DNA of 64,000 nt from Thuidium tamariscinum (taxonomy: Eukaryota; Streptophyta; Bryopsida; Hypnales; Thuidiaceae), in assembly GCA_947034885.2 (NCBI GenBank), contig OX344753.2, forward strand, positions 20,956,001-21,020,000, in the 5' to 3' direction. A model generated the notes under the pieces. The model was not told the DNA's origin and made no database searches. It saw nothing but the letters and a program-made list of their open reading frames with translations. Position numbers and translations under genes: made by a program. Positions 49,910-51,848 of the stretch are shown one piece after another; within the stretch, counting starts at the first letter, position 1, and each line of letters begins with the position of its first letter.

Positions 49910-51848
49910 CTAGTATTCCTCCTCTCCTCCACCATCACCTTCTGTAGTATCTGCACCAACTTCCTCGTAGTCTTTCTCAAGGGCAGCCAAGTCTTCTCGT
50001 GCCTCCGAGAATTCCCCTTCTTCCATTCCCTCACCGACATACCAGTGAACAAATGCGCGCTTGGCGTACATCAGATCGAACTTGTGGTCCAAGCGTGCAA
50101 ATACCTCAGCAACACTGGTGCTGTTAGCAACCATGCAGCAGGCACGTTGCACTTTAGCCAGGTCACCACCTGGAACCACTGTAGAAGGCAGAACTGGTTA
50201 AACCATGATAGTGCCTCTGTGTGATCTTACAAGTTGACATATCGAGCGTACACGACAGTATGCCATTTCAATTGTTTTATGCTTTCACAAGTTACCTGTG
50301 GGAGGCTGGTAGTTAATTCCACACTTGAAGCCCGTGGGACACCAGTCCACAAATTGGATTGTGCGTTTGGTTTTGATGCTACCAATTGCAGAGTTGACAT
50401 CCTTCGGGACGACATCACCACGGTACATCAATGCGCAGGCGATGTACTTGCCGTGCCGTGGGTCGCATTTTGCCATCATGCTAGAAGGATCGAAGAGACT
50501 GTTGCTGAGTTCCGAGACTGTCAACTGCTCATGGTAAGCTTTCTCTGCCGATATGACAGGTGCGTAGGACGAGAGCATGAAGTGGATCCTGGGATATGGC
50601 ACCAGATTTGTCTGGAAATTTGTGAGATCCATGTTCAAGGCGCCGTCGAAGCGCAGGGAGGCTGTGAGTGAAGACACCACCTGCATGTGGAATTAGACTA
50701 TAGTAATATTTTAATAAATTGCAATTAACAAATACGGAGCATTCTGTGGAATTGGTACAAGTCGCACGGATGAAACATGAAGCTGTGTCATTTTATCGCC
50801 TACAACAATGCACAATTTCTGAGAAGGACCTGGGTAATAAGCCGATTCAAGTTTGTGTAGGTGGGACGCTCAATATCCAAGTTTCTTCGGCAAATATCGT
50901 AAATGGCCTCGTTGTCGAACATTATAGACACCTCCGTATGTTCCAAGAGCCCGTGACAAGATAAAACGCCGTTGTAAGGCTCCACCACGGCACCGGACAC
51001 CTGTGGACTGGGGAAAATACACTTGGAGATTTTGGTCTTCTTCCCATAGTCGACAGCCATCCTCTCTAACAGCAAGGAGCCTAGGCCTGAGCCTGTTCCG
51101 CCACCAACAGCATGGAAGACCAGGAATCCCTGAAGACCTGTGCACTGGTCTGCCAGCTTACGGATTCTGTCGAGGGCTAAATCCACGATCTCCTTTCCAA
51201 CTGAATAGCGAGGATAGCATGGTTGTATGAGATGCATGTTCTTACCAATGAATCTTGGAATTGCAATTCTCGACGTAATTTTATATAAGGTGAATCACGG
51301 ACTACAACAGGGTAGCTGTGAATAGTGAAGTTAGCGATGATCAACAGGATAGCTGGGCATTTGGTCAATGAAATAAATCACAGACTGCAGTATCTAAGCT
51401 GTACGTACTTGTGTAGTGTCCACGAGCGAAGTTGTTGGCTGCATCCTCTTTGCCGCTGATGAGCTGCTCGGGGTGGAAAAGCTGGCGGTATGTGCCTGTC
51501 CGCACTTCGTCTACCACGGTGGGTTCTAGGTCGACATACAAACAGCGAGGGACATGCTTTCCGGCTCCCGTTTCGCTGAAGAAGGTATTGAAAGCATCAT
51601 CTCCACCTCCTACTGTTTTGTCTATTGGCATCTGACCATCCGGCTGTACAGTTTACAGTACATCGAGATTAGAGTAGTACTAATCAACTAATTATGAGAG
51701 CTGGGATTTCATGTTTGTCAAGATTACAAATGGTGAAGCTGCTCTGAATGCTCACCTGGATACCGTGCTCAAGGCAAAAAAGCTCCCAACAGGCATTTCC
51801 AACCTGAACGCCGGCCTGACCAATGTGGATACAAATGCATTCTCTCAT
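49910..51848 (-). CDS. Divergent alpha-tubulin (five exons, 450 aa) with Asn at position 254
   Basis: Exons are 51848-51756, 51643-51409, 51200-50830, 50680-50296 and 50178-49910. The product starts [13 protein letters not shown] and is exactly 450 residues, the usual length. The nucleotide-binding parts are intact: QAGVQVGN, D69-E71, D98-N101, GGGTGSG (142-148), E183, N206 and N228. K40 and the C-terminal tyrosine (EEEY) are kept. The catalytic glutamate at 254, normally LTEFQTN, is Asn (LTNFQTN). Residues 167-172 read ISKCIF where plant alpha-tubulins have LGFTVY-like sequence, and 178-193 ([16 protein letters not shown]) are also altered. All splice sites and the frame are sound, so this looks like a functional but specialised isotype. 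It would pair with beta-tubulin in microtubules. Tissue of use is unknown. Confidence 0.95.

What the first reader, a model, noticed from the sequence alone, without database searches (positions are those of the whole stretch)
49910..51848. Intact alpha-tubulin whose catalytic Glu254 is Asn
Hand-spliced exons give a 450-residue alpha-tubulin with perfect phases, intact GTP-site residues and a terminal tyrosine. Position 254, counted from the assembled protein, is Asn (AAT, in LTNFQTN). Alpha Glu254 reaches across the longitudinal interface to activate water for hydrolysis of beta-tubulin GTP, and changing it is known to slow or block hydrolysis and stabilise microtubules. Both GAA and GAG need two base changes to reach AAT, so a single read error cannot explain it. 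A naturally hydrolysis-impaired isotype could build unusually stable arrays, for example in sperm axonemes if the plant has motile sperm (inference).
Basis: partly seen in the sequence, partly recalled or inferred. Interest (0 to 1): 0.85.

Follow-up and report, generated by a model that had tools for sequence, protein, structure and literature searches.

The report
Alpha-tubulin family lacking catalytic glutamate
The genome, apparently a plant's, keeps four intact alpha-tubulin genes in which the residue that triggers GTP hydrolysis in microtubules is replaced by asparagine, a change that in laboratory human tubulin stops hydrolysis and stabilises microtubules; selection has preserved all four, which is surprising because that residue is thought essential for microtubule turnover.

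Summary
The window gene (51848-49910, minus, five exons, GT-AG introns) encodes a 450-residue alpha-tubulin with Asn254 (AAT) in place of the catalytic glutamate. Three more intact genes in the same genome (one on contig C3, two on C2) also carry Asn254, codon AAC. The four form one clade (support 99.1/100; 97/100 without residues 246-258); its sister gene and the other open alpha genes have Glu254, so the change is derived. The clade is old (dS 0.80-0.96 among three copies, saturated to the window copy) and constrained: dN/dS on the window branch is 0.017, and 1 is rejected (p 3e-9). So it is neither read error nor decay. Published human alpha-E254N microtubules do not hydrolyse GTP and grow without catastrophes. 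The genome encodes alpha-TAT, radial-spoke and PACRG families, so flagellated sperm are likely. Use in stable sperm arrays is the best inference, but there are no expression or biochemical data, and no other plant could be examined. Apicomplexan alpha3-tubulin is a looser published precedent.

The parts
51756..51848 (-). exon 1 of the Asn254 alpha-tubulin gene (codons 1-31), starts ATG
   Evidence: phase-0 intron GT..AG follows
51409..51643 (-). exon 2 (codon 32 to first base of codon 110), includes Lys40
50830..51200 (-). exon 3 (rest of codon 110 to 233), includes the GGGTGSG nucleotide loop 142-148
50296..50680 (-). exon 4 (codon 234 to first base of codon 362), holds Asp251 and Asn254
50618..50620 (-). 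codon 254, AAT (Asn), where the Glu254 paralogues have GAG
49910..50178 (-). exon 5 with C-terminal tail ...GGGEEEY and stop TAG
52213..52219 (-). upstream match GACGGTT to the published DUO1 consensus RRCSGTT, 371 bases before the ATG; weak evidence, about 0.9 such sites expected in that kb by shuffling
   Evidence: site and expectation; consensus, from PMC6290024

Best explanation
The gene belongs to a conserved alpha-tubulin subfamily of four genes in which Glu254, the residue that reaches across the longitudinal interface to activate the water that attacks beta-tubulin GTP, has become Asn. Heterodimers carrying it should assemble (nucleotide pocket, Asp251 and tail are intact), but at every interface where such an alpha caps a beta, GTP should not be hydrolysed, or only very slowly, so the polymer stays in the stable GTP state. 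Mixed with ordinary Glu254 alpha-tubulin, the isotype would tune stability by dose. The likeliest place of use is the terminal microtubule arrays of flagellated sperm (axonemes and the spline), which need never be taken down. Shown here: gene structure, Asn254 in four intact paralogues, monophyly, derived state, purifying selection, flagellar gene families in the genome. Shown by others: effect of E254N in human tubulin. Inferred: the biochemical effect in this protein, the site of expression, and that the organism is a plant.
For: Four intact genes with Asn254 and two synonymous codons. One clade, 99.1/100, also without columns 246-258. Sister gene C10 and the other open alpha genes have Glu254, as do the six distinct PDB alpha-tubulins whose alignments were displayed (five, one more, of 172 and 166 sequences matched). 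Seven positions in columns 1-436 are fixed in the clade and absent from the 7 Glu254 sequences compared: C191, E199, M250, N254, S292, I313, A316. dN/dS 0.0098 in the three conserved copies and 0.016-0.017 on the window branch; 1 rejected for the window branch, p 3.3e-9. dN/dS on the stem where Asn254 arose is raised, 0.088 (p 0.04 against one ratio), compatible with a change of role. Human E254N microtubules: no GTP hydrolysis by HPLC, no catastrophes, expanded lattice (PMC8764682); poor nucleation, usable in mixtures (PMC11893814). Acetyltransf_16 (alpha-TAT), Radial_spoke and ParcG (PACRG) families found. In Marchantia an antheridium-specific alpha-tubulin, MpTUA5, exists (PMC6290024); whether it carries Asn254 is not known here.
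Against: No expression data. Lys40 is also present in Glu254 paralogues, so it does not assign the clade to flagella. DUO1-like sites occur within 1 kb of 3 of 4 Asn254 genes and 0 of 4 open Glu254 genes scanned, but also upstream of the stop-bearing C9 copy, and the chance expectation is 0.4-1.1 per kb, so this proves nothing. The flagellar-family searches had only prokaryotes as controls; no plant without flagella was searched. The clade's other substitutions, such as M250 and A316, could alter what Asn254 does. dN/dS = 1 cannot be excluded on the stem branch (p 0.65). No other plant could be examined, so conservation beyond this genome is untested.
Confidence: 0.55

Rival explanations
1. 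The subfamily is functional but still hydrolyses GTP, slowly or by another route: Asp251 plus local changes (Met250, Ala316) let another group orient the water, so Asn254 only slows the reaction.
For: Asp251 is retained in all four genes. Met250, Ile313 and Ala316 are fixed in the same clade as Asn254, and by recalled homology to the beta-tubulin colchicine pocket 250, 254 and 316 lie near each other. Human E254D is slowed, not dead (PMC7018511, passages).
Against: Human E254N did not hydrolyse GTP (PMC8764682). Four beta-tubulin loci read here keep Lys254 in LNSDLRKLAVN and show no compensating acid in that motif.
Confidence: 0.2
2. The isotype serves a non-sperm role, for example another long-lived array, or a minor component that dampens dynamics generally.
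For: No tissue data exist here, and the DUO1-site evidence is not significant.
Against: The yeast mutant at this glutamate is lethal because division fails through loss of dynamics (as cited in PMC7018511, passage read), so use in dividing cells would be costly. Flagellar gene families are present.
Confidence: 0.2
3. Pseudogene, early decay or assembly error.
For: The window copy is the fastest-evolving of the four, with 21 residues in columns 1-436 not found in the other ten sequences compared, against 1, 2 and 1 for the other three Asn254 genes.
Against: Open frame, correct splice sites, dN/dS 0.017, 1 rejected at p 3.3e-9. Three further genes share the residue with another codon. Decayed copies in this genome look quite different, with stops and frameshifts.
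Confidence: 0.02

Closest known systems
Engineered human alpha-tubulin E254N (PMC8764682; PMC11893814)
   Same: same substitution at the same residue
   Different: engineered mutation in human tubulin; here a natural, conserved four-gene lineage with six further clade-specific changes in columns 1-436
Apicomplexan (Toxoplasma and relatives) alpha3-tubulin (PMC10056924, passages)
   Same: natural alpha isotype lacking Glu254, proposed by its authors to have reduced or no GTPase-activating function
   Different: it also loses Asp251 (T), has Q/H at 254, an MPREI start in most homologues and a long tail; the genes here keep Asp251, an MREC start and a normal tyrosine-ended tail
C10 alpha-tubulin of the same genome (L046)
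   Same: sister gene, 90-94% identical to the four, same first three intron positions, Lys40
   Different: has Val250 and Glu254
Marchantia MpTUA5, antheridium-specific alpha-tubulin (PMC6290024)
   Same: possible functional counterpart as a sperm alpha-tubulin in a plant with flagellated sperm
   Different: its residue 254 could not be checked here

Membership tests
alpha-tubulin (by descent) | nests within alpha-tubulins in a sequence tree | tested here: met
   sister to C10 alpha-tubulin inside alpha sequences
alpha-tubulin (by descent) | alpha-specific insert (TVVPGGDL) and C-terminal Tyr | tested here: met
   sequence; that the insert is alpha-specific is recalled
alpha-tubulin competent to trigger beta-GTP hydrolysis | catalytic Glu254 | tested here: not met
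   Asn254
alpha-tubulin competent to trigger beta-GTP hydrolysis | Asp251 | tested here: met
alpha-tubulin competent to trigger beta-GTP hydrolysis | measured GTP hydrolysis in the lattice | not testable with these tools
   needs recombinant protein
axonemal (acetylatable) alpha-tubulin | Lys40 | tested here: met
   but Glu254 paralogues C10, C1a and C1b also have it
axonemal (acetylatable) alpha-tubulin | found in sperm flagella | not testable with these tools
   no transcriptome or proteome held
apicomplexan-type alpha3-tubulin | loss of Asp251 together with Glu254, long tail, MPREI start | tested here: not met
   Asp251 kept, tail EEEY, MREC start; definition from PMC10056924, passages

The most novel reading that the evidence does not exclude
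A plant lineage evolved, duplicated and kept under strong selection a dedicated non-hydrolysing alpha-tubulin, so that its sperm axonemes and spline are built largely from permanently GTP-state microtubules: a natural counterpart of the laboratory GTP-cap mimic.
Probability: 0.35. Interest if true: 0.92.

Novelty: new variant of a known kind. Interest (0 to 1): 0.78.

Why it matters
Glu254 is treated as the conserved trigger of microtubule dynamic instability, and mutating it is lethal in yeast (as cited in PMC7018511). A natural four-gene family without it, at a dN/dS of about 0.01, suggests that organisms can use microtubules that do not run the hydrolysis clock. It makes directly testable whether GTP hydrolysis is dispensable for building axonemes and other terminal arrays, and offers natural material for GTP-lattice structure in place of engineered mutants.

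Tried and rejected
Sequencing error and decay: rejected by three further intact Asn254 genes and by branch dN/dS.

Lys40 as a marker of the Asn254 clade: rejected, it is shared with Glu254 paralogues.

DUO1 sites as evidence of sperm control: 3 of 4 Asn254 genes and 0 of 4 open Glu254 genes scanned (C10, C1a, C1b, C7a) have a site within 1 kb, but the stop-bearing C9 copy also has, and shuffling gives 0.43-1.12 per kb; not used (C7b, C1c and the other broken copies not scanned).

Compensating change in beta-tubulin: four beta loci read in six-frame translation only, of six seen; Lys254 is kept in each. The first exons of two (L061, L062) were not in the stretch fetched. No full beta alignment was made.

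Relatives elsewhere: viral contigs gave none. Genome contigs gave four stretches in bacterial bins, which I take to be eukaryotic contamination; the two that reach residue 254 have Glu. No collection of plant genomes was open to me.

Taxon: not identified. One paper search for a matching moss assembly was not followed up. That the organism is a plant, perhaps a moss, is inference from gene content and recall.

Pairwise NG86 dS between the window gene and the other seven genes compared was not computable (reported as -1), so no age by that method. The codon tree groups C3 with C2a (support 65-68) and the protein tree C3 with C2b (51); the branch model used the latter.

Literature for natural Glu254 loss: searches listed 3, 1, 3 and 4 papers; I opened passages of the engineered-human papers and the apicomplexan review, and saw the rest (among them the review PMC12186500) in the listing only. 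Searches for moss or liverwort sperm tubulins showed no residue-254 sequence in the listings and in the two papers I opened from them (PMC6290024, PMC8128824).

Full report
WHAT IS THERE. The window (genome G000, contig C5:20956001-21020000) carries on its minus strand, from 51848 to 49910, an alpha-tubulin gene of five exons. Splicing by script and a spliced alignment agree on 450 residues, no stop, ATG start, TAG stop and four GT..AG introns. Residue 254 is Asn, codon AAT at 50620-50618. Asp251, Lys40, the nucleotide loop GGGTGSG and the terminal Tyr are intact.

IT IS A FAMILY. I searched the whole genome with the protein, fetched 17 alpha-like regions and aligned each. Asn254 is present in four intact genes: the window gene, C3:22.46 Mb (L041), C2:10.72 Mb (L044) and C2:36.65 Mb (L045). 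The codon is AAT in the window and AAC in the other three. Glu254 (GAG) is present in seven: C10 (L046), C1a and C1b (L039, L040), an inverted pair on C7 with identical proteins (L042, L043), and two genes with in-frame stops, C9 (L047) and C1:36.9 Mb (L051). The remaining seven regions (L048-L050, L052-L055) gave broken or spurious alignments. L048 and L049 have Val before [10 protein letters not shown]050 printed Asn at column 254, but in a stretch without that motif, so it is not counted. An exact-match scan for DNA encoding FQTNLVPYP found 13 places, which are these 4 Asn, 7 Glu and 2 Val (residues).

HISTORY. In a protein tree with three PDB alpha-tubulins for comparison, the four Asn254 genes form one clade (SH-aLRT/bootstrap 99.1/100). 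Its sister is the Glu254 gene on C10 (99.7/100). Removing residues 246-258 leaves this intact (97/100 and 99.6/100). Asn254 is therefore derived. From GAG it takes two base changes, through Asp or Lys. Seven positions in columns 1-436 are fixed in the clade and absent from the seven Glu254 sequences compared: C191, E199, M250, N254, S292, I313, A316. By recalled structure, 250, 254 and 316 lie close together at the T7 loop, helix H8 and strand S8; no structure was measured here.

SELECTION. Pairwise dS among the three conserved copies is 0.80-0.96 with dN/dS 0.019-0.034; to the window copy dS is not computable. A branch model of my own on seven genes and 435 codons (p-values) gives dN/dS 0.0137 overall. 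With four ratios it gives 0.0098 in the three-copy clade, 0.0156 on the window branch, 0.077 on the stem and 0.0148 elsewhere; freeing one branch at a time it gives 0.0167 for the window branch and 0.088 for the stem. dN/dS = 1 on the window branch is rejected (p 3.3e-9), and the window branch does not differ from the rest (p 0.53). The stem is faster than the rest (p 0.04), and 1 cannot be excluded there (p 0.65).

WHAT THE CHANGE DOES. Human alpha-E254N tubulin has been made. Its microtubules do not hydrolyse GTP by HPLC, grow without catastrophes, have an expanded lattice (rise 83.45 A) with positive twist, and bind EB3 in weak and strong segments (PMC8764682, passages read). It nucleates poorly but co-assembles with alpha-E254Q in mixed microtubules (PMC11893814, passages). 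E254D is slowed (PMC7018511, passages). The same paper cites the yeast mutant at this residue as lethal through lost dynamics; that primary paper is not held. By homology, this isotype should form interfaces that do not hydrolyse GTP. This is inference: identity to the human protein was not measured (the window protein is 85.8-86.5% identical to the three PDB chains compared), and the clade's other substitutions might modify it.

WHERE IT IS USED. The genome encodes the alpha-TAT acetylase family (101 bits), a radial-spoke protein (129 bits) and PACRG (108 bits), as expected for an organism with motile flagella; the searches' controls were prokaryotes only. Sperm of the moss Physcomitrium carry two flagella and a spline of microtubules (PMC8128824, passages), and Marchantia has an antheridium-specific alpha-tubulin, MpTUA5 (PMC6290024, section 8 read). 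Sperm use is therefore the best guess. Against over-reading: Lys40 is not special to the clade, DUO1-like sites are not significant, and nothing is known of expression.

KNOWN OR NEW. The only natural precedent found is apicomplexan alpha3-tubulin, in which D251 and E254 are replaced by T and Q/H and whose authors propose slowed or absent GTPase activation (PMC10056924, passages). Searches listed no report of a plant alpha-tubulin without Glu254; not every listed paper was opened, and the held library lacks most subscription journals and all preprints. I rate it a new variant of a known kind: alpha-tubulin by descent, without the residue needed for its catalytic partner role.

LIMITS. One genome, no name, no expression, no other plant sequences, no biochemistry. 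The existence, age and constraint of the Asn254 subfamily are firm; hydrolysis loss is likely; sperm use is plausible.

Noticed in passing
G000:C7:16511074-16513467 (+) and 16528397-16530790 (-), L042/L043: An inverted pair of alpha-tubulin genes with identical predicted proteins, about 15 kb apart; the only open alpha genes among those assembled here with Thr instead of Lys at position 40.
   Followed up: partly
L047 (C9:5.43 Mb) and L051 (C1:36.9 Mb): Alpha-tubulin copies with 2 and 5 in-frame stops, both keeping Glu254: decay looks unlike the Asn254 genes.
   Followed up: partly
G000:C3:43937571-43992676: Three similar beta-tubulin-like loci within about 55 kb, in mixed orientation; only one was fetched.
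   Followed up: no
window 4260-6889 and 11172-11624: Leucine-rich-repeat open frames (Pfam for the first two, the third by eye) on either side of a transposon-like stretch; possibly one LRR gene split by it.
   Followed up: partly
window 7436-10285: Two adjacent open frames with Tc5-type DNA-binding (HTH_Tnp_Tc5) and DDE_1 domains, a DNA transposon.
   Followed up: partly
window 32056-32583: Open frame matching the N-terminal part of choline/ethanolamine kinase (Pfam PF01633).
   Followed up: no
L063, L064: Eukaryote-like alpha-tubulin genes in contigs binned as a Verrucomicrobiaceae MAG (pond sample), probably contamination of that bin; both have Glu254.
   Followed up: yes
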